From Viridibacillus arenosi (lineage in GTDB: Bacteria > Bacillota > Bacilli > Bacillales_A > Planococcaceae), in the NCBI RefSeq assembly GCF_001955655.1, contig NZ_MSPW01000006.1, positions 1-64,000 of the forward strand: a DNA stretch of 64,000 nucleotides, in the 5' to 3' direction. The first letter of the stretch is position 1; every line of letters starts with the position of its first letter. Of this stretch, positions 21 through 52,913 are shown piece after piece. Made by a program: the position numbers and the translations under genes. Below the pieces are notes generated by a model, which worked only from the letters and a program-made list of their open reading frames with translations, had not been told where the DNA came from and did no database searches.

Positions 21-95
21 GGCGGTTGTGGCGAAGTGGTTAACGCACCTGATTGTGGTTCAGGCATTCGTGGGTTCGATTCCCATCAGTCGCCC
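21..95 (+). tRNA. tRNA-His (GTG)
   Basis: Cloverleaf with anticodon stem CCTGA/TCAGG around loop TTGTGGT, which gives anticodon GTG. The T arm is TGGGTTCGATTCCCA. The acceptor GGCGGTT pairs with AGTCGCC with G-T wobbles, and the discriminator base is C. The 3' CCA is not encoded. First of five tRNAs that look like the end of a longer tRNA or rRNA-tRNA operon starting outside the window. Confidence 0.95.
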
Positions 96-103
96 CATAT
101 TAT

Positions 104-175
104 TGGGGTATAGCCAAGCGGTAAGGCAACGGATTTTGATTCCGTCATGCCCTGGTTCGAATCCAGGTACCCCAG
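104..175 (+). tRNA. tRNA-Gln (TTG)
   Basis: Anticodon stem ACGGA/TCCGT around loop TTTTGAT gives anticodon TTG. The acceptor TGGGGTA/TACCCCA pairs perfectly and the discriminator is G. CCA is not encoded. It starts 8 bases after the tRNA-His, so the two are probably processed from one transcript. Confidence 0.95.
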
Positions 176-183
176 TTAAATTT

Positions 184-258
184 GCGGAAGTAGTTCAGTG
201 GTAGAACACCACCTTGCCAAGGTGGGGGTCGCGAGTTCGAACCTCGTCTTCCGCTCCA
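184..258 (+). tRNA. tRNA-Gly (GCC)
   Basis: Acceptor GCGGAAG/CTTCCGC, anticodon loop TTGCCAA giving GCC, T arm CGAGTTCGAACCTCG. The 3' TCCA is encoded, unlike in the two preceding tRNAs. Confidence 0.95.
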
Positions 259-270
259 TTTTCTATTTAC

Positions 271-344
271 GGCGGCATAGCCAAGTGGTAAGGCACAGGT
301 CTGCAACACCTCTACCACCGGTTCAAATCCGGTTGCCGCCTCCA
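271..344 (+). tRNA. tRNA-Cys (GCA)
   Basis: Acceptor GGCGGCA/TGCCGCC with encoded TCCA. The anticodon loop CTGCAAC gives GCA. Fourth tRNA of the cluster. Confidence 0.95.
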
Positions 345-386
345 ATTATTTTTAAAATAACTACATATAATCTATAATAATATTAT

Positions 387-468
387 GCCGGTGTGGCGGA
401 ATTGGCAGACGCGCACGACTCAAAATCGTGTTCTTTCGAGAGTGTCGGTTCGACCCCGACCACCGGTA
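387..468 (+). tRNA. tRNA-Leu (CAA)
   Basis: Class II tRNA with a long variable arm (GTTCTTTCGAGAGT). Anticodon stem CACGA/TCGTG around loop CTCAAAA gives CAA. Acceptor GCCGGTG pairs with CACCGGT, with a terminal G-T. Last tRNA before the terminator. Confidence 0.94.
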
Positions 469-41501: not shown

Positions 41502-41690
41502 TAGATATCCAGCTTCAGCGGCCAGCCCTTCGAGGTCACTTCAGTCTCTCGGTCAAAAGTTAAAGTGATGCTTTTGATTCGAGCCTTCCAGTGCTTGTCA
41601 GGGGCCAACAGGAAGTTGGTTATGTAGCCGTTGCCACAGGACGTGGCGAACTTAGGCTATCTTCCATTAAACGGGCCGCTTCAGCATTTA
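41502..41690. repeat. Longer variant of the palindromic element, copy C
   Basis: Same ends as the others (ATCCAGCTTCAGCGGCC at the left, GGGCCGCTTCAGCATTTA at the right), but a different body. It has an inner palindrome around AAGTGATGCTTTTGATTCG and an extra module of about 60 bases (AACAGGAAGTTGGTTATGTA, CCGTTGCCACAGGACGTGGC). Its right end abuts the stop codon of yheE. Confidence 0.75.
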
Positions 41691-44066: not shown

Positions 44067-44499
44067 TTTTTAAGTAAATTTAATTGACTTAGTAATTTCA
44101 ATTTATTAAGAAAGCTACAAACAACAAGATATTAATAGGTTTCTCTTTTTAGATGTGACAATGAATGTACTTAAATATTTAGTTTCAGGCTGAAGGAATT
44201 ACATATGTATAGTGTCCAAAAAATATATAATTGCAATTTTAAAAAGACTTAGTTATTAGGTGCAATGATTATAATTAGCATGATTTTTTAATCAATTAAT
44301 ATAGTGAGAGTATTCAAATGTATTATATTATGTATTATTTGTAAAATAAATAGCCGTGTTGGATGGGTTTTGTAAAATATGTAAATGTTGCCGAGGTAAT
44401 ATAGAATCTATGAGAGGCATACCATATAATCGAAGTGGTTGAACTTAATAGATTTTCTATTAGGCAAATACAACCCTAAAAATAGAGAGGTGTGGGATA

Positions 44500-45612
44500 G
44501 TGAGGAATTACAGTTATAAATTTGTAAAACCTTTAACATCATTAGTGTTAGGAGCAACTTTATTAACAAGCGCCGTCATTGCTCCGATAACCAGTGCGGA
44601 GGCAGCAGTGTCTTCTAGCTACAAAATTATCAAAGGGAAGCTAGTTTCAAAATCAACTAGCAAAATAGTAAAAGGGATTAAGACTTACAAAGGTAAGGTT
44701 TACAAAGATGGCAAGTTACTAACAGGTTTAAAATCAGGGGTTTATTACAAAAAAGGTGTTAAATGGACTGGTTGGTATAAAGGCAAATGGTACGAAAAAG
44801 GTAAAGCATTAACGGGGTTTGGTAAAAACACTAGTAAATTATATATTAATGGAAAGCTCGCAATGGGTAATTGGTATAAAGGTAAATGGTATGAGAACGG
44901 AAAAGCTTTAACTGGACTAGGGAAAAATACAGGAAATTTATACGTTAATGGTGTTATAAACACTGGAAAGTATTTATACAAAAATAAATTATACGATGGT
45001 GCAGTTTTAAACAAAGGTCTAAAGCTATATGGAGACAAACTATATAGTGGTGCAGCCTTAAATCAAGGTCTAATATTTTTTGAAGGTAAACTATACAATG
45101 GCACGGCATTAAATCAAGGTTTAGCACTATTTGAAAGTAAACTATATAACAGTGCAGCGTTAAATGTAGGCATCGTACAGTATGGAGGTAAATGGTACAA
45201 CGGCTCTGGCTTAGCGTCTGGAACTATTACAACCCCAGACGGAAAAACAATACAGGTTGAGAATGGTGTTGAAAGTTCACCAGGTAACGGATCGTCATCA
45301 GGGAATAATGGCGGAACAAGTGATCATGCCCCAACTGCATCAAGTGTCAAGATTGTTGGAGCTGCAAAAGTAGGTGTAACATTAGAAGTTACTTATACTT
45401 ATACAGATATAGATAAAGATGTAGAAAAGGGTACAACATTCCAGTGGTATGCAGATGGAAAAGCAATTACTGGCGCAACAACTTCGACATTTAAACTGAC
45501 AACAGATCAAGTAGGTAAAGTAATCTCTGTACAAGTGACACCCAAAAATGATAAAGCGATAGGAAATGCCGTAACAGCAACTTTACCAAATGTAGTAGTA
45601 ACTCCTCAATAA
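44500..45612 (+). CDS. Secreted repeat protein with C-terminal Ig-like domain
   Basis: 370 residues from GTG 44500. A signal peptide ends near residue 36 (VIAPITSAEAA). Then follow about ten short Tyr/Gly/Lys repeats of the type WYKGKWYEKGKALTG or LYGDKLYSGAALNQG (about 75-245), a Gly/Ser linker (about 265-280) and an Ig-like domain (APTASSVKIVGAAKVGVTLE onward). The repeats resemble choline- or wall-binding style repeats found in Planococcaceae surface proteins. No LPXTG or SLH domain is seen, so the repeats may hold it on the wall. It lies just upstream of the split 5'-nucleotidase. Confidence 0.75.
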   Translation: MRNYSYKFVKPLTSLVLGATLLTSAVIAPITSAEAAVSSSYKIIKGKLVSKSTSKIVKGIKTYKGKVYKDGKLLTGLKSGVYYKKGVKWTGWYKGKWYEKGKALTGFGKNTSKLYINGKLAMGNWYKGKWYENGKALTGLGKNTGNLYVNGVINTGKYLYKNKLYDGAVLNKGLKLYGDKLYSGAALNQGLIFFEGKLYNGTALNQGLALFESKLYNSAALNVGIVQYGGKWYNGSGLASGTITTPDGKTIQVENGVESSPGNGSSSGNNGGTSDHAPTASSVKIVGAAKVGVTLEVTYTYTDIDKDVEKGTTFQWYADGKAITGATTSTFKLTTDQVGKVISVQVTPKNDKAIGNAVTATLPNVVVTPQ

Positions 45613-45717
45613 AATTAAACGAAACGTTACTTTATAAGCTAGAGAAATATCTAGTGAAATAAGTAGAAATAATCATTCATGAATAGAATATTTAATAAGA
45701 AAAAACCTTCATAATGA

Positions 45718-45787
45718 ATGTTTCTAACTGTTATTTTCCAATTGGTAGGTGTAATTCCTACTCTTGCACAACAGTCTTTTGAAGCAA
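45718..45787 (+). CDS. Signal-peptide exon of the split 5'-nucleotidase (partial)
   Basis: ATG 45718 opens a hydrophobic stretch (MFLTVIFQLVGVIPTLAQQS, then FEA) that ends abruptly where group II intron-like sequence begins. A start further up (ATG 45679, NRIFNKKKPS) is in the same frame but cut off by TAA TGA. Joined to about 46,426 it gives a leader running into EENFTLSLMHTNDTH, the classic start of a secreted 5'-nucleotidase. No good ribosome binding site is visible, so the gene may be damaged as well as interrupted. Confidence 0.55.
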
Positions 45788-46425
45788 GTGCCTAATCCTC
45801 CTGGACCCAGTGATGCGCTGATCAGCAGAAGGGGTTAAGTCAGGTGAAGTCGTACTCGAAAAAAACGAGGCGGGGCTCTTTAAAAGACAGCTATGGTTAG
45901 GCAGACGAATCCATGTAGGCAGTGTGAGGTAGTGAATGTTGCGAAACGCTAGGAGTTCAACATTCATCCTTATAGATGAAATGATGTAATGGGGGTTAGT
46001 AAAATTGACTGTTAAACTAACCATTCTCACAACTGAATAGTGGAGACCTAAGGCTGTCAAAATAAGGGATGGATATAACGGAACGTTTGAAGTTCTTCTT
46101 GACGAGGTGAATCAGCACTGAAGAAGCAAGAAGAACGGCAGCGGGTTCGTAGTAGTGATGATTGCTGGCCGTTTGGATTTGTATGGTAACATACGAAAAG
46201 GATAAAACCAGCTGGAGCGAAGGAACCCAGTCAGCAGAGTATTCTCTAAATTGCTAATCTCCTCAATAAATAATTCAGAATGTTCAGTTTTCATGAGTAT
46301 TTAATGAGGTAGAAAAAAAGTGAAAAGACAATCATTCTACTGATAGCACGCCGTATGCGATGAAAGTCGCCTGTACGGTGTAGGCCCGAAACGAAATCCA
46401 CAAGATGTGGTATAAGACGGGAATA
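45788..46425 (+). mobile_element. ORF-less group II intron
   Basis: About 640 bases with the ordered parts of a group II ribozyme. Domain I resembles known introns (GGGGTTAAGTCAGG...GTACTCG). A 10-bp stem GTTCTTCTTG / CAAGAAGAAC could be domain III. A textbook domain V lies at about 46,347-46,381 (CGCCGTATGCGATGAAAGTC, then GCCTGTACGGTG). Domain VI has CCCG...CGGG closing and an unpaired A near the end. AAAAGA in domain I could be EBS2 for TCTTTT in the 5' exon. There is no reverse transcriptase ORF, so mobility and perhaps splicing would need a maturase from elsewhere. Exact ends are uncertain by a few bases. Confidence 0.75.
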
Positions 46426-48266
46426 GCGAAGAAAACTTTACTTTATCATTAATGCATACCAACGACACACATGCACATTTAGATAATATAGCGAAAAGAA
46501 CAACTGCCATCAAAAATGTTAGAGCTAAAAAGCCAAATTCATTATTACTAGATGCAGGTGATGTTTTTAGTGGCACGCTATATTTCAATGAATTCCAAGG
46601 AAAAGCAGATTTGGAATTCATGAATTTATTACGTTATGATGCAATGACCTTTGGTAATCATGAATTCGACTTAGGCTCAAGTAAAGAAGGGCATCAGGCT
46701 TTAGCTGATTTCATCAAAGGTGCAAATTTCCCATTCATTAGTGCCAATGTAGACTTTTCTGCAGATGATCGCTTTAAAGGTCTGTTTACAGATCTAATCT
46801 CGAGTAAGCCTGAAAAAGGTAAAATTTATAATGGAATTATTAAAGAAATCAATGGCGAAAAAGTAGGGATTTTTGGTTTAACAACGGAAGAAACTAAGGA
46901 TATTTCAAGCCCTGGCAGTATAGTATTTGAAAATTATATTAAAGAGGCTGAAAAAGCAGTTAAAGCGTTTGAAGGGCAAGGCGTCGATAAAATTATTGCT
47001 TTGACACATATCGGTTATGATGACAATGCGAAAATCGATAATGATTTAACATTAGCTTCAACAGTTAAGGGCATTGACGTGATTGTTGGTGGGCATAGTC
47101 ATACACAGTTAGATGAGCCAGTCGTTATAGATCAAGATAATAACAATAAAACAAAAGATCCAACTGTTATTGTTCAGGCGTATCAATATAGTGATTATTT
47201 AGGCAATGTTGATGTTGAGTTTGATAGTAAAGGTAAAGTTATTACAACAAATGGAGAATTGATTAAACTTAGCAGCCTTGCAGACGACGTAGAAGCGGCT
47301 AACATACTTAAGAAATATTCTGATCAGATTAAAGAAGTATCTAATAAACCAATCGGAGCAGAAGCGTTAAGTGAACTGAGTAACCCAAGAACATCAGACA
47401 CGGGTCCAAGTGTCCGTAATAGTGAAACAGCACTTGGAAATATCATTACAGATGGTATGTTAGCAAAGGCAAGAGCACAAACCAAAAATAATAATATCAT
47501 TATGGCACTACAAAATGGTGGAGGTATTCGATCAGGCATTAATGCAGGTGAGATCACTGTTGGAGAAGTTATAACAGTACTACCATTTGGAAACACATTA
47601 GCAACAATGAAGCTTACAGGAGCTGAATTAAAGCAAGCATTTGAAATAAGCTTTAAGGAATCTCCAAAAGAAAGTGGAGGCTTCCTTCACGTATCTGGTG
47701 CAAAAGTTGAATTTGATTCATTAAAACCAGTGGGCGAACGAGTTGTATCGATCAAGTACAAAGATACAAATGAAACTTACGTGGATATAAAAGACCAAGA
47801 GAGTTATACAGTAGCAACAAATGCCTTCACTGCAAAGGGTGGAGATAAGTATGATGTCTTTAAAAAAGCCTATGAAGAAGGTCGTGTAACAGACTTGGGA
47901 CTTTCGGATTGGGAAAATTTAGCGGAACATTTAGCGTCTCTTAAAAAAATCAAACCTACACTAGAAGGACGTATTGTAGACGTGAAAAAGGGTGAAGATC
48001 CAGATATTAGAATACCAGGTGCGGAATTCTCTGGTACTACTGAATCTCCAAAAGTTTACAATGGGAATGTGATCGTTGATATTACAGATGTTGCTTCTAT
48101 ATCCAATGCGATAATTAAAGGAAACTTAATCATCACTGGCACAGTATCTGAAGATATTATCATTTCTAATATTAAAGTGGAAGGTAACTTAGATTTATCC
48201 GCTGTTAAAGGGGATAGTGATAATAGTTTTGAAAATATCGAAGTAACTGGTGAAACAAACATATGA
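46426..48266 (+). CDS. 5'-nucleotidase / metallophosphatase body (3' exon)
   Basis: About 613 residues downstream of the intron. The metallophosphatase domain has MHTNDTHAHLD at its start, LLDAGDVFSG, TFGNHEFDLG and VDVIVGGHSHTQLDE (as IDVIVGGHSHTQLD). The 5_nucleotid_C domain has LQNGGGIRSGI and ATNAFTAKGGDKYDVF. A C-terminal tail of about 100 residues is rich in beta-strand repeats (VASISNAIIKGNLIITGTVS). It would release phosphate from nucleotides outside the cell. The ATG at 46452 could start translation alone but would lose the signal peptide and has no clear site. Confidence 0.88.
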
Positions 48267-48368: not shown

Positions 48369-51300
48369 ATGAGTAAAGGGAACTGGAAAAAGACATTTAA
48401 TGCTTTGTTGTCGGTAAGTTTAGTGACAAGTTTCATATTGCCTTCACTGTCAACACCTGTAAAAGCTGCAACTACTTCGACGGATTTAATTATTTCTGAG
48501 TATATTGAAGGAAGTGGTTTTAACAAAGCAGTTGAAATTTACAATGGTACCGGTGCTACAGTTAATTTAAATGACTATACGTTAGAGCTTCATATTAATG
48601 GAGCTGCGGCGGCAGCTCAAAAAGTGGAATTGGTAGGAACTTTGGAAAATAACGATACGTATGTTGTATATCATAAAGATGCAAATACGGCTATAAAGAG
48701 TAATGGGGATCTTGAAAACTCTTCTGTTGTTAATTTTAATGGTGATGATCCAATTGTTTTAAAAAAATCTAGTGAAATCGTTGATTCGATCGGACAAGTT
48801 GGTTCACAAATTAAATTTGGAGAGAACATGACACTTGTACGGAAGAGCTCCGTAACGACTGGGGACAAGATTATCAATGATACCTTTAATAGAGATGCAG
48901 AGTGGTCAACTTATCCAATTGATACAACTGAGTATTTAGGCTCTCATACAATGGGGGATACTCCAGTAGAGCCTGGAGAACCAGGAAATCCAGGGGAAAA
49001 TACAGTCATTTCAATTGCTGATGCACATGCTAAAGCAATGGGAGAAACTGTAATGATTAAAGGTATCGTCGCTGCAAAGTTAAAGAATACTATTTCAGTT
49101 CAAGATGCGACTGGTGGTATTGCAGTTCGTCCGGTAAGTTTAAATGCAGTGGTTGGAGATGAAGTTACATTAACAGGTAAATTAGCAGATTATCGTGGAT
49201 TGCTTCAATTAGATGGAGCAACCATTGTAGAAAATAAGGAAAATGTAGGAGAACCTCAACCAAAAGTAATTACAGGTGCAGATGTTAAGGAAGAAAACGA
49301 ATCACAACTTGTGACAGTGAAGAACGTTTCACTTACCACAGTACAAGATGGAGGTAGTTGGGCAAACTTTACTGGGAATGATGGAACAGAATTCATCGTA
49401 CGGGACGAAACGAATGCTCTAGGTTTAACAGCCAATACGAAATATGAGTCTATTACAGGGATTGTTCAACAATTCGATAATGACTACCAAATTATCCCGC
49501 GTTCTACAACAGATATCGTTGTTGATAGTACAACATTAGCGCCTGCTGTCGCTACTCCAGGAAGTGGGACATATGTTAAAGATACAGCTGTCACTTTATC
49601 TACAACTAGTGCAAATGCAGAGATGTATTACACGCTAGATGGTACTGATCCAACTATTACTAGTACCAAATATGAAAAGCCAATCCAAATTACTAAAACT
49701 ACAACACTTAAAGCCATTGTGAAAGATCAAGATGGTAAATTAAGTGAAGTGTCGACTTTCAATTATACAATCGCAGATCGGTTTGAAATTCATGATATTC
49801 AAGGAGATAAACATGTTACTCCATTTAATAATCAAATTGTGGAGGGTATTGAAGGTGTTGTAACTTATTCATTTAAGCTAGGCACTGCAAATTATTATTC
49901 GATCCAAACGCCAGATGATATGGCGGATAACAATCCGAATACATCAGAAGCTATTTTACTTTATAGCGGTAACAAAGCTTGGCCGATCAAAGTGGGTGAT
50001 TTAGTATCTGTTACAGGAAAAGTAAGTGAATATGCATACGATGGATATAGTGATCGTCAAGATACAGACTTGAAAACAACTCAAATAAATGTTCGTGATG
50101 ATCAGGGTGGAAAGGTTACAGTCATTAAAAGCGGTATTAAGCTGCCAGCGCCAATCACTATTGATGAGGATAAGATGTCATTAAAAGCAATCGATAGTGA
50201 TAATTTATCCGTTTTTAATCCAACAGTAGATGCAATTGACTTCTGGGAAAGTATTGAGGGTATGCGTGTACAAATCGGAAACGTGAAAGCTGTAGCTCCA
50301 CAAGATAATGGTGACTTGGTGACGGTTCTTGAAAGTGCAAAAACAAATTCACTTCACGGCGGAGTTTTATTTGAGGAAAAGAACCAAAATCCAAATCGTA
50401 TCCAATTCCGTTTAGAGCCAAATGGAACTGCACGTGATTTTGAAGTAGCGACAGGAGATCGATTTAATGGTCCGATTACGGGTATAGTTGGTTATTCATA
50501 TCAAAACTTTAAAATTTATGCTTCTTTAGAGGAAATGAAAGCAGCACATAAAAAAGGAAATGCAACACCTGAAAAAACAACGATTGTCAAAGCAGATGAC
50601 AAGTTAACGGTTGCTTCCTATAACTTGGAAAACTTCTCTAATAATAAGACATCAACTTCTGATAGCAAAGCTAGTAAATTAGCTAGAGCAATTGGTATTG
50701 ATATGCAGAGCCCTGATATCGTTGGTGTGACTGAAGTACAAGATAATAATGGTGAAACTGCAGGAGATAGCAAGGCAGATCAAAGTTATGCAAGATTGAT
50801 TACAGCTATAAAAGCTGCAAGTGGTGTGGAATATAAATATGTAAACATTGACCCAGTAAACAATCAAGATGGTGGAGCGCCAAATGCTAATATACGTGTC
50901 GGATTCTTATATAATCCAAGTCGTGTGACATTAACTCAGGGGAATCCACAAGGGGATGCAGCGACTGCAGTAGGTTATGAAAATGGAAAGCTTACGTTGA
51001 ATCCAGGTCGAATTGATCCAACAAATGAGGCATTTAATAGTAGTCGTAAACCATTAGCAGCACAATTTAATTTCCAAGGTGAGAATGTAGTGGTCATTGC
51101 AAACCATTGGAATTCTAAATCAGGTGACACACCATTATTTGGTTCTATTCAACCACCTGTTTATAAAAGTGAAATTCAACGTAAAAAAATTGCACAAATT
51201 GTTTCAAATTTTATAAATGATATTAAGGCAAAAAATCCAAAAGAAAATATTATTTCTCTTGGGGATTTCAATGATTACCAATTTACTGAATCTCTAAAAA

Positions 51301-52913
51301 TTCATGAAGGTAAGAATATGACCAATATGATTAATAAAGTAGAAGAATCCGATCGTTACACATATCTTTACCAAGGGAATTCCCAAGTGTTAGATCATAT
51401 TCTAGTTTCTAACAACTTAGCAAGCAAAACCGCAATTGATATCCTTCATATCAATGCTGATTTTACAGATATGGCTGGTCGGGCAAGTGATCATGACCCT
51501 GTTTTGGTACAAGTAGATTTCGATGAAGAATCAGAAGTTGAACCAGTGAAACCAGAAAAAACGTATGATTTGGTTAATTTTAAAACAAAGAAATTGACTA
51601 TTACGAAACCAAGTGTTGCCGTAAATTTAGATGGGGCATCTATCATCACAGAAGGTGTCTTATTAAAAAGTAATTATGCAGAACTGAATGGTGCTGGATT
51701 CAAAACAACAAAAGTCATAATAGCCCCTAACAAAGAAGGGACTATAATAGATTTAAAAGGTACAGAAATGAAAGAGATAATTATTGATGGACAAAACGTT
51801 AGCGAAATAAGAGGTGCAGAAAATATTCAAAGCATTGAGTTTATTAACGGTGCCAAAGCAGAACAAATTAAATTTACAAATACAAAAGGGGAACCCATTG
51901 AGGTTCCTTCTTTCCCTTCTGAAAATAAAGCACCAGTTGTAACGAGTAAAATTCCAAACAAAACGTTAAAGACTGGGGAAATTGTGTCGGTGTTACTTAC
52001 AGACCACTTCTCTGATCCTGATGGTGACAAACTAACATTCACTGCAACAAAAGGTACTGTCAATCAAGCGACTGCCACGTTGACACTTTCACTTGAAGAA
52101 GGAAGCTATATTATTGGTGTTACAGCTACTGATGGTAAAAAAGAAGTAACAACCAATTTCTCAGTAACAGTTACTGCAGCCGATGTTCCAACTGACGATT
52201 ATTATAAAGACGCAATGGGGAAAACTGGTCAAGCTTTAAAAACAGCATTACATGACATTATAGATGAGCATAAACAATTGACTTACGACCAAGCATGGGA
52301 AGCGTTAAGAGAAACAGATGAAGATCCAAATAACTCAAATAATGTGATTTTGTTTTATTCAGGAGAATCACGCTCTAAAACCCGTAACGGAGGAAATGTT
52401 GGTGACTGGAACCGAGAACATACATGGGCAAAATCACATGGAAACTTTGGTACAACTAAAGGTCCCGGTACAGATATCCACCATTTACGTCCAACTGACG
52501 TTAAAGTTAACAGTAGCCGAGGTAATCTAGATTTTGATAACGGCGGTAGTCCAGTTGCAGGGTGTAATGGTTGTTTTAAGACTTCTAATTCATTCGAACC
52601 ACCTAATAGAGTAAAAGGTGACGTTGCCAGAATACTATTATATATGGCAACACGCTATGAACAAGGTGATAAAGTAGATCTCGAATTAAATGAAAAATTG
52701 AATAATGGAACTGCCCCATATCATGGCAAGCTTTCTGTATTGTTACAATGGCATTTACAAGATCCAGTTGATGAGTTTGAAATGAACCGAAATAATGTCA
52801 TTCAAGAATGGCAAGGCAACCGTAATCCATTCATTGATCATCCTGAATGGGTAAAGCTCATTTGGGGAACACAAAGCAACAGCAAAATAAGCACAGTCAA
52901 CTTAGCATCTTAA
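48369..52913 (+). CDS. Secreted multidomain nuclease: LTD, OB folds, EEP nuclease and endonuclease I
   Basis: 1,514 residues, start behind AAGGAG. Signal peptide to about 35 (STPVKAA). Then a lamin-tail domain (about 37-150), an OB-fold domain (about 215-345), a chitobiase-like Fn3 (about 395-465) and an ExeM-like OB fold (about 470-600). The exo/endonuclease/phosphatase domain (about 745-1055) has KLTVASYNLENFS, VGVTEVQD, ANHWNSKSGD, LGDFNDY and ASDHDPVLV. A beta-rich stretch and cadherin-like domain (about 1190-1270) lead into an endonuclease I domain (about 1275-1500; WNREHTWAKSHG, DIHHLRPTD). Two different catalytic nuclease domains sit in one chain. Likely degrades extracellular DNA. Confidence 0.88.
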   Translation: MSKGNWKKTFNALLSVSLVTSFILPSLSTPVKAATTSTDLIISEYIEGSGFNKAVEIYNGTGATVNLNDYTLELHINGAAAAAQKVELVGTLENNDTYVVYHKDANTAIKSNGDLENSSVVNFNGDDPIVLKKSSEIVDSIGQVGSQIKFGENMTLVRKSSVTTGDKIINDTFNRDAEWSTYPIDTTEYLGSHTMGDTPVEPGEPGNPGENTVISIADAHAKAMGETVMIKGIVAAKLKNTISVQDATGGIAVRPVSLNAVVGDEVTLTGKLADYRGLLQLDGATIVENKENVGEPQPKVITGADVKEENESQLVTVKNVSLTTVQDGGSWANFTGNDGTEFIVRDETNALGLTANTKYESITGIVQQFDNDYQIIPRSTTDIVVDSTTLAPAVATPGSGTYVKDTAVTLSTTSANAEMYYTLDGTDPTITSTKYEKPIQITKTTTLKAIVKDQDGKLSEVSTFNYTIADRFEIHDIQGDKHVTPFNNQIVEGIEGVVTYSFKLGTANYYSIQTPDDMADNNPNTSEAILLYSGNKAWPIKVGDLVSVTGKVSEYAYDGYSDRQDTDLKTTQINVRDDQGGKVTVIKSGIKLPAPITIDEDKMSLKAIDSDNLSVFNPTVDAIDFWESIEGMRVQIGNVKAVAPQDNGDLVTVLESAKTNSLHGGVLFEEKNQNPNRIQFRLEPNGTARDFEVATGDRFNGPITGIVGYSYQNFKIYASLEEMKAAHKKGNATPEKTTIVKADDKLTVASYNLENFSNNKTSTSDSKASKLARAIGIDMQSPDIVGVTEVQDNNGETAGDSKADQSYARLITAIKAASGVEYKYVNIDPVNNQDGGAPNANIRVGFLYNPSRVTLTQGNPQGDAATAVGYENGKLTLNPGRIDPTNEAFNSSRKPLAAQFNFQGENVVVIANHWNSKSGDTPLFGSIQPPVYKSEIQRKKIAQIVSNFINDIKAKNPKENIISLGDFNDYQFTESLKIHEGKNMTNMINKVEESDRYTYLYQGNSQVLDHILVSNNLASKTAIDILHINADFTDMAGRASDHDPVLVQVDFDEESEVEPVKPEKTYDLVNFKTKKLTITKPSVAVNLDGASIITEGVLLKSNYAELNGAGFKTTKVIIAPNKEGTIIDLKGTEMKEIIIDGQNVSEIRGAENIQSIEFINGAKAEQIKFTNTKGEPIEVPSFPSENKAPVVTSKIPNKTLKTGEIVSVLLTDHFSDPDGDKLTFTATKGTVNQATATLTLSLEEGSYIIGVTATDGKKEVTTNFSVTVTAADVPTDDYYKDAMGKTGQALKTALHDIIDEHKQLTYDQAWEALRETDEDPNNSNNVILFYSGESRSKTRNGGNVGDWNREHTWAKSHGNFGTTKGPGTDIHHLRPTDVKVNSSRGNLDFDNGGSPVAGCNGCFKTSNSFEPPNRVKGDVARILLYMATRYEQGDKVDLELNEKLNNGTAPYHGKLSVLLQWHLQDPVDEFEMNRNNVIQEWQGNRNPFIDHPEWVKLIWGTQSNSKISTVNLAS

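What the first reader, a model, noticed from the sequence alone, without database searches (positions are those of the whole stretch)
45679..48266. Surface 5'-nucleotidase interrupted by an ORF-less group II intron right after its signal peptide
A signal-peptide-like exon ends at 45,787. About 640 bases follow with a domain V and VI of a group II ribozyme and no reverse transcriptase. Then the frame EENFTLSLMHTNDTH opens the enzyme. Joining 45,787 to 46,426 keeps one reading frame. The sequence alone suggests that export of this enzyme depends on RNA splicing, which is rare in bacterial protein genes. A caveat is that this join gives an intron ending in ATA rather than the usual A-pyrimidine, and the end at 46,424 would shift the frame.
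Basis: partly seen in the sequence, partly recalled or inferred. Interest (0 to 1): 0.75.

Follow-up and report, generated by a model that had tools for sequence, protein, structure and literature searches.

The report
S-layer-type intron with buried 5' end
A self-splicing type of intron without any helper gene sits between a cell-surface protein gene and a nucleotide-degrading enzyme, and splicing would replace the first gene's stop codon so that the enzyme is made as part of the surface protein; the same arrangement, often with several alternative enzyme or binding segments, recurs in dozens of related bacteria whose copies were earlier taken for dead intron remnants.

Summary
The "signal-peptide exon" (45,679-45,787) is intron RNA: it has two in-frame stops, its length is not kept modulo 3 in relatives, and it folds into covarying hairpins. 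The true first exon is the upstream surface-protein gene (44,500-45,606), with its own signal peptide. The predicted intron is 45,607-46,424. Splicing gives ...NVVVTP|SEENFTLSLMHTNDTH in phase 0 and removes the UAA stop at 45,610. The 5' splice site is set by IBS1 ACUCCU (45,601-45,606) pairing with EBS1 AGGAGU (45,951-45,956). This pair covaries across 60 relatives (26 distinct combinations, 148 of 156 positions paired; permuted 114.8 +/- 3.6). It lies 181 nt upstream of the GUGCC motif; known shifts are 1-33 nt. All 76 related 3' exons are open in the matching phase; 19 of 60 loci carry 2-5 D5/D6-plus-exon cassettes. The host genome has no maturase. An intron-less paralogue in the same genome encodes the same fusion as one ORF. 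The closest known system is C. tetani C.te.I1; its authors called related S-layer-gene sequences remnants. These loci look maintained and widespread in Bacilli. No RNA evidence exists yet.

The parts
44484..44492 (+). Shine-Dalgarno-like AGAGAGGTG, 7 nt before the GTG start of exon 1
   Evidence: sequence
44500..45606 (+). exon 1: surface protein (signal peptide, cell-wall-type repeats, Ig/AIR9-like domain), 369 aa to the splice site
   Evidence: homologous to the N-terminal part of intron-less fusion proteins
45601..45606 (+). IBS1 (ACUCCU), last six bases of exon 1
   Evidence: covariation with EBS1 over 60 loci
45607..46424 (+). group II intron, ORF-less, 818 nt (predicted boundaries)
45610..45612 (+). 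UAA stop used by unspliced mRNA; removed by splicing
45607..45787 (+). 181-nt 5' extension between the 5' splice site and the GUGCC motif (122-237 nt, median 167, in 60 relatives)
45627..45666 (+). conserved two-part helix of the extension
45744..45762 (+). conserved hairpin of the extension; 5 of 6 pairs with compensatory changes
45763..45788 (+). helix that pairs the G of GUGCC, so the canonical 5' junction is buried
45788..46234 (+). domains I to III (starts GUGCC)
   Evidence: 73 of 123 predicted pairs have compensatory changes
45932..45967 (+). EBS1 hairpin with enlarged loop
45951..45956 (+). EBS1 (AGGAGU)
46235..46347 (+). domain IV region: short, variable, no ORF
46348..46381 (+). domain V
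46385..46421 (+). domain VI; holds UAA (46413-46415) in the frame of exon 2, three codons before the 3' splice site
46425..48266 (+). exon 2: 5'-nucleotidase (Metallophos + 5_nucleotid_C), 613 aa, no signal peptide and no plausible start of its own

Best explanation
It is a maturase-less group II intron of the kind found in the Clostridium tetani C.te.I1 locus, in a variant with a long structured 5' extension. Unspliced mRNA is translated from GTG 44,500 to UAA 45,610 and gives a secreted cell-surface protein alone. When the intron folds, its EBS1 (45,951-45,956) pairs with the last six bases of exon 1 (45,601-45,606) and selects 45,606|45,607 as 5' splice site. Domain V/VI places 46,424|46,425 as 3' splice site. 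The exons are joined in phase 0 into a 982-residue protein in which the surface protein carries a 5'-nucleotidase at its C terminus. Splicing thus acts as a stop-codon bypass that turns a fraction of a wall protein into an exported, wall-bound enzyme. Shown by sequence comparison: both boundaries, phase, covariation, absence of a maturase, existence of the same fusion without an intron. Inferred: that splicing takes place, its rate, wall binding, and that no protein helper is needed.
For: (1) The element is sharply bounded in different host genes...CTCCT|YAATAAAAnTAAACGAAACGTTAC at the 5' side and GAAT|AGY at the 3' side. (2) IBS1/EBS1: 26 distinct combinations, 148 of 156 positions paired, 114.8 +/- 3.6 after permutation, 0 of 100,000 permutations as good. 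52 of 60 loci are fully paired. Sliding by 1 to 4 bases leaves at most 2 fully paired, and the hexamer before GUGCC is never fully paired. Six loci from other families follow the same rule by inspection. (3) Phase: in 76 of 76 three-prime exons and 58 of 60 five-prime exons the long open frame is the one in phase 0 at the predicted sites; in the other two the alignment is off by one base. The 3' exons are otherwise dissimilar (7% mean column identity). (4) 75 of 76 three-prime exons have an in-frame stop exactly three codons upstream, inside domain VI. (5) RNA structure: domains I-III with 73 of 123 pairs compensated; extension with 98.0% of cells paired against 84.1 +/- 0.9 shuffled; domain V/VI with 12 of 22 pairs compensated. 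(6) Intron-less paralogues in the same genome and in two congeners encode surface part plus nucleotidase as one ORF. (7) No GIIM maturase domain in the host genome.
Against: No transcript or splicing data. Permutations treat loci as independent although they are related. The branch-point position 8 nt before the 3' splice site is not conserved, so lariat formation is doubtful; C.te.I1 is reported to splice by hydrolysis (PMC3919590). A few loci have an imperfect IBS1/EBS1 pair or lack domain V/VI nearby, so some copies may be dead. A group II intron with its 5' splice site more than 33 nt upstream of GUGYG is not reported in the papers I could read.
Confidence: 0.88

Rival explanations
1. One reading: a mini-exon at 45,679-45,787 with a signal peptide is spliced at 45,787|46,426 to the nucleotidase.
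For: Joining these points leaves MFLTVIFQLVGVIPTLAQQSFEASEENFTLS open, and GUGCC stands at 45,788, where a group II intron would normally begin.
Against: TAA and TGA in frame at 45,712-45,717 and no Shine-Dalgarno near ATG 45,718; frame broken in 41 of 60 relatives; the G of GUGCC is in a conserved helix; the hexamer before GUGCC never pairs fully with EBS1; the proposed intron end GAATA is not the family's GAAT.
Confidence: 0.02
2. Dead intron remnants next to surface-protein genes, as proposed in 2014 for similar sequences in Lysinibacillus, Sporosarcina and others.
For: Published reading (PMC3919590); no maturase in the genome; some copies lack domain V/VI nearby.
Against: Compensatory changes throughout the ribozyme and the extension, covarying IBS1/EBS1 and 76 of 76 in-phase 3' exons cut off from translation by a stop in domain VI point to selection on splicing. 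Remnants would drift.
Confidence: 0.06
3. The intron RNA is maintained for another purpose, such as a transcript-ending or regulatory structure after the surface-protein gene, and the nucleotidase is translated separately from an internal start such as ATG 46,452.
For: A terminator-like hairpin is present in the extension of 37 of 60 loci, against 14.8 in shuffles.
Against: It does not explain the IBS1/EBS1 covariation across exon and intron, nor phase 0 at both sites. An internal start would remove the first strand of the enzyme and leave it in the cytoplasm, while the intron-less relatives are exported fusions.
Confidence: 0.04

Closest known systems
C.te.I1 of Clostridium tetani (McNeil et al. 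2014, PMC3919590)
   Same: Maturase-less group II intron directly after a surface-layer protein gene; the stop codon of exon 1 lies between the real 5' splice site and GUGYG; EBS1 in an enlarged loop; 3' exons each behind their own D5/D6; splicing fuses the reading frames.
   Different: Shift of 8 nt there, 181 nt here (122-237 nt in relatives) with a conserved folded insert. The window locus has one 3' exon, not four. Splicing was shown experimentally there, not here. Its authors regarded similar sequences in other species as remnants.
Fungal mitochondrial rRNA IIB1 introns with 5' insertions (reviewed in PMC4424553)
   Same: Splice upstream of GUGYG through an altered IBS1-EBS1 pairing; branch-site motif lost.
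   Different: Insertions of 1-33 nt, in organellar rRNA, mostly encoding a LAGLIDADG protein.
B.a.I2 of Bacillus anthracis (as described in PMC3919590 and PMC9294222)
   Same: Splicing decides whether one ORF or a fusion of two ORFs is made.
   Different: Choice between two 3' sites 4 nt apart; no displaced 5' site.
Bacillus cereus group introns with domain VII, such as B.c.I4 (PMC4424553)
   Same: An extra structured RNA segment moves a splice site away from its canonical motif.
   Different: Extension at the 3' end, 50-70 nt.

Membership tests
group II intron | domain V with conserved fold | tested here: met
   RF00029 41.1 bits over gathering 40; covarying D5
group II intron | domains I to IV, conserved fold upstream of domain V | tested here: met
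   73 of 123 pairs with compensatory changes; assignment of single helices to named subdomains was not done
group II intron | exon recognition by EBS1-IBS1 | tested here: met
group II intron | 5' end GUGYG at the splice site (has known exceptions) | tested here: not met
   a GUGCC motif exists but 181 nt inside the predicted intron
group II intron | 3' end AY | tested here: met
   76 of 76 end GAAU
group II intron | bulged branch-point A in domain VI | tested here: inconclusive
   the position 8 nt before the end varies
group II intron | splicing activity | not testable with these tools
   needs RNA
C.te.I1-like surface-protein introns | no maturase in the genome | tested here: met
   PF08388 absent in G000 and G001
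C.te.I1-like surface-protein introns | upstream surface or S-layer protein whose stop lies just inside the intron | tested here: met
   56 of 60 loci have a stop within 3 codons after the 5' site; SLH domain in 14 of 58 exon fragments
C.te.I1-like surface-protein introns | several D5/D6-plus-exon cassettes | tested here: not met
   the window locus has one; 19 of 60 related loci have 2-5
C.te.I1-like surface-protein introns | 5' splice site shifted by about 8 nt | tested here: not met
   shift of 181 nt
C.te.I1-like surface-protein introns | direct sequence relation to C.te.I1 | not tested
   C.te.I1 itself was not compared; the 2014 paper reports BLASTN matches to Lysinibacillus and others
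5'-nucleotidase | metallophosphatase plus C-terminal nucleotidase domain | tested here: met
   PF00149 1.8e-13, PF02872 3.2e-41

The most novel reading that the evidence does not exclude
A broadly distributed bacterial alternative-splicing system. In many Bacilli the S-layer or other surface-protein gene ends in a group II intron whose long 5' domain contains the gene's own transcription terminator. Read-through past that terminator makes the ribozyme, which then appends one of several exon cassettes (enzymes, binding domains) to a minority of the surface subunits, without any maturase and in some genomes perhaps in trans from cassettes tens of kilobases away.
Probability: 0.35. Interest if true: 0.92.

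Novelty: new variant of a known kind. Interest (0 to 1): 0.82.

Why it matters
[quoted passage not shown] Here one family of Bacilli alone yields 60 loci with covarying splice-site pairing and in-phase exons, and copies occur in further families. That would make mRNA splicing a regular way to diversify bacterial surface proteins. It also gives dozens of natural systems for asking how a ribozyme can use a splice site some 170 nt away from its canonical end, and whether it needs a protein helper. A 2022 survey counted 281 introns without a maturase gene in 1,790 representative genomes (PMC8919778), so some of these elements may already be in lists, but I found no description of them as functional.

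Tried and rejected
Canonical 5' site at 45,788: rejected on IBS1/EBS1. Trans-acting maturase in the host: none with GIIM; other splicing helpers cannot be excluded. Descent from the maturase-encoding introns of the same family: profile searches of 30 such loci found no similarity to D1-D3 or D5/D6. Plasmid and phage relatives: none. Rfam D1-D4 families: no bacterial D1-D4 match in the region even at relaxed threshold. More D5/D6 cassettes in the host: only the two known loci. The C.te.I1 structure paper (PMC4024640) and the fungal 5'-insertion paper (PMC3138568) are not held. One fetch of 20 regions failed on a length limit and was repeated.

Full report
Where it is. The window lies on a 239-kb contig of a 4.4-Mb Viridibacillus genome; the nearest named relative is V. 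arvi, 97% identical in the nucleotidase and carrying the same intron. The finding sits between a surface-protein gene (44,500-45,612) and a 1,514-residue extracellular nuclease gene (48,369-52,913).

Checking the observation. Rfam sees a group II domain V/VI at 46,346-46,446, just over the curated score. The stretch 45,770-46,440 folds 4.5 standard deviations better than shuffled sequence. There is no reverse transcriptase in the element, and no maturase domain PF08388 anywhere in the genome. So the intron is real. The proposed first exon is not: read from 45,679 it is MNRIFNKKKPS**.

The second copy gave the clue. The genome holds one other element (contig C12). It runs about 180 bases further upstream, to the exact point where two only distantly similar surface-protein genes end in ...TPQ* and ...TPQKN*. 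Downstream, similarity stops after ...GAAT, and both 3' exons continue with AGY in phase 0.

The family. The element was found in 79 of 261 genomes of the bacterial family. I fetched 60 stretches of up to about 20 kb; together with the window and two earlier stretches they gave 65 matches to the 5' part and 93 to D5/D6 in profile searches. Sixty complete 5' parts were aligned. The 5' boundary reads ...[A/G]CTCCT|YAATAAAAnTAAACGAAACGTTAC. The last six exon bases vary between loci and so does a hexamer in the loop of a domain I hairpin, in step: GGTGCT/AGCACC, ATCCCT/AGGGAT, CCTGCT/AGCAGG, ACTACT/AGTAGT, GTTTCT/AGGAAC, GTCGAA/TTCGGC. Over 26 distinct combinations 148 of 156 positions pair, against 114.8 +/- 3.6 when partners are permuted. 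Sliding the exon hexamer by one base in either direction destroys the pairing, and the hexamer before GUGCC never pairs fully. This is the EBS1-IBS1 interaction that defines a group II 5' splice site, and it puts the site at 45,606|45,607, 181 nt upstream of GUGCC.

Frames. At these boundaries the long open frame is in phase 0 in 76 of 76 three-prime exons and in 58 of 60 five-prime exons; the other two are off by one base in the alignment. The 3' exons are mutually dissimilar on the whole (7% mean column identity), apart from eight nucleotidases, so the common phase is not simply inherited. In 75 of 76 cases domain VI holds an in-frame stop three codons before the 3' exon, and in-frame start codons lie a variable distance inside the exon. 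In 56 of 60 loci a stop follows the 5' site within three codons. Unspliced mRNA should therefore yield the surface protein alone and only spliced mRNA the fusion.

An intron-less version exists. In the same genome (contig C11), in its sister genome and in a third Viridibacillus without the intron, one uninterrupted ORF of 763-780 residues joins the same N-terminal surface region (...ITTPDGKEINVVDGVEKNF) to the same nucleotidase (...ALSIMHTNDTHAHLD). This is independent evidence that the two exons make one protein.

The 5' extension. Between the 5' splice site and GUGCC lie 122-237 nt (median 167). Four helices in it keep 98.0% of pairs (84.1 +/- 0.9 shuffled), with 11 pairs changed on both sides; the last helix includes the G of GUGCC itself, so the canonical junction is buried. 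In 37 of 60 loci the extension also contains a hairpin followed by a T-rich run, like an intrinsic terminator (14.8 expected from shuffled segments). It is weak in the window copy and missing in the C12 copy. A role in deciding how often the intron is transcribed is an inference only.

Cassettes. Of 60 complete 5' parts, 54 have a D5/D6 downstream in the fetched stretch and 19 have two to five; the complete D5/D6 copies are followed by in-phase exons. The window locus has one. A covariance-model search of the host genome finds only the two known D5/D6 copies. Pfam names for 3' exons include 5'-nucleotidase (8 of 75), Shr-like haem-protein-interacting domain (5), pectate-lyase-like adhesive domain (5), peptidase M28 and carbohydrate-binding domains. 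5' exons include SLH domains (14 of 58, with many N termini cut by the fetch), bacterial Ig-like domains and SbsC_C.

Spread. A class-wide sample (399 genomes) has domain I-III matches in 29 genomes of 12 genera, in the host family and five others. Six loci from outside the host family that I read show the same boundary, the same kind of extension and a matching IBS1/EBS1 pair (by inspection).

No maturase. By hand count, 35 of 54 genomes with a strong match to the element have no GIIM domain. The maturase-encoding introns of the family show no similarity to it.

Comparison with the known. C. tetani C.te.I1 (PMC3919590) is the clear model: no maturase, S-layer gene upstream, stop codon inside the intron, displaced 5' site, D5/D6-plus-exon cassettes, and splicing shown in vivo and in vitro. 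It differs in the size of the displacement (8 nt). That paper's BLASTN hits in Lysinibacillus, Bacillus sphaericus, Sporosarcina and Brevibacillus were called remnants. I think they belong to the family described here and were missed because the 5' splice site was sought near GUGYG; I did not compare those records or C.te.I1 themselves. The 2015 review (PMC4424553) gives 1-33 nt as the range of such displacements and calls C.te.I1 the sole independent example. A later survey counts maturase-less introns without, in the passages I read, describing these (PMC8919778). Literature coverage is limited to open papers.

Verdict. Corrected, it is a member of a widespread, apparently functional variant of C.te.I1-like introns. 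Splicing itself remains to be shown.

Noticed in passing
L131 (G202:C2:272000-290500), L132 (G162:C1:668327), L137 (G049:C1:133906): D5/D6 units with in-phase 3' exons that lie 19-41 kb from the nearest 5' part, or in a genome where no 5' part was found: candidates for trans-splicing or stranded cassettes.
   Followed up: partly
extension of most related loci, for example L100 and L113; window about 45667-45730: Terminator-like hairpin with T run just after the surface-protein stop codon, inside the predicted intron.
   Followed up: partly
window 48369-52913: 1,514-residue secreted protein with LTD, ExeM/NucH-type nuclease and endonuclease I domains right after the nucleotidase exon; together they suggest extracellular DNA and nucleotide scavenging.
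   Followed up: no
G000:C12:12618-13346: Second intron of the host, between a paralogous surface protein and a 461-residue exon without Pfam match; extension only 135 nt and without terminator-like hairpin.
   Followed up: partly
L069 (G001:C15:632476-632534) and G002:C62:29188-29247: Isolated D5-like elements with a short domain VI, probably from other group II introns.
   Followed up: no
window 41605-41671 (-): Bacillaceae-1 RNA (RF01690), 71 bits.
   Followed up: no
window 22-468: Cluster of five tRNA genes.
   Followed up: no
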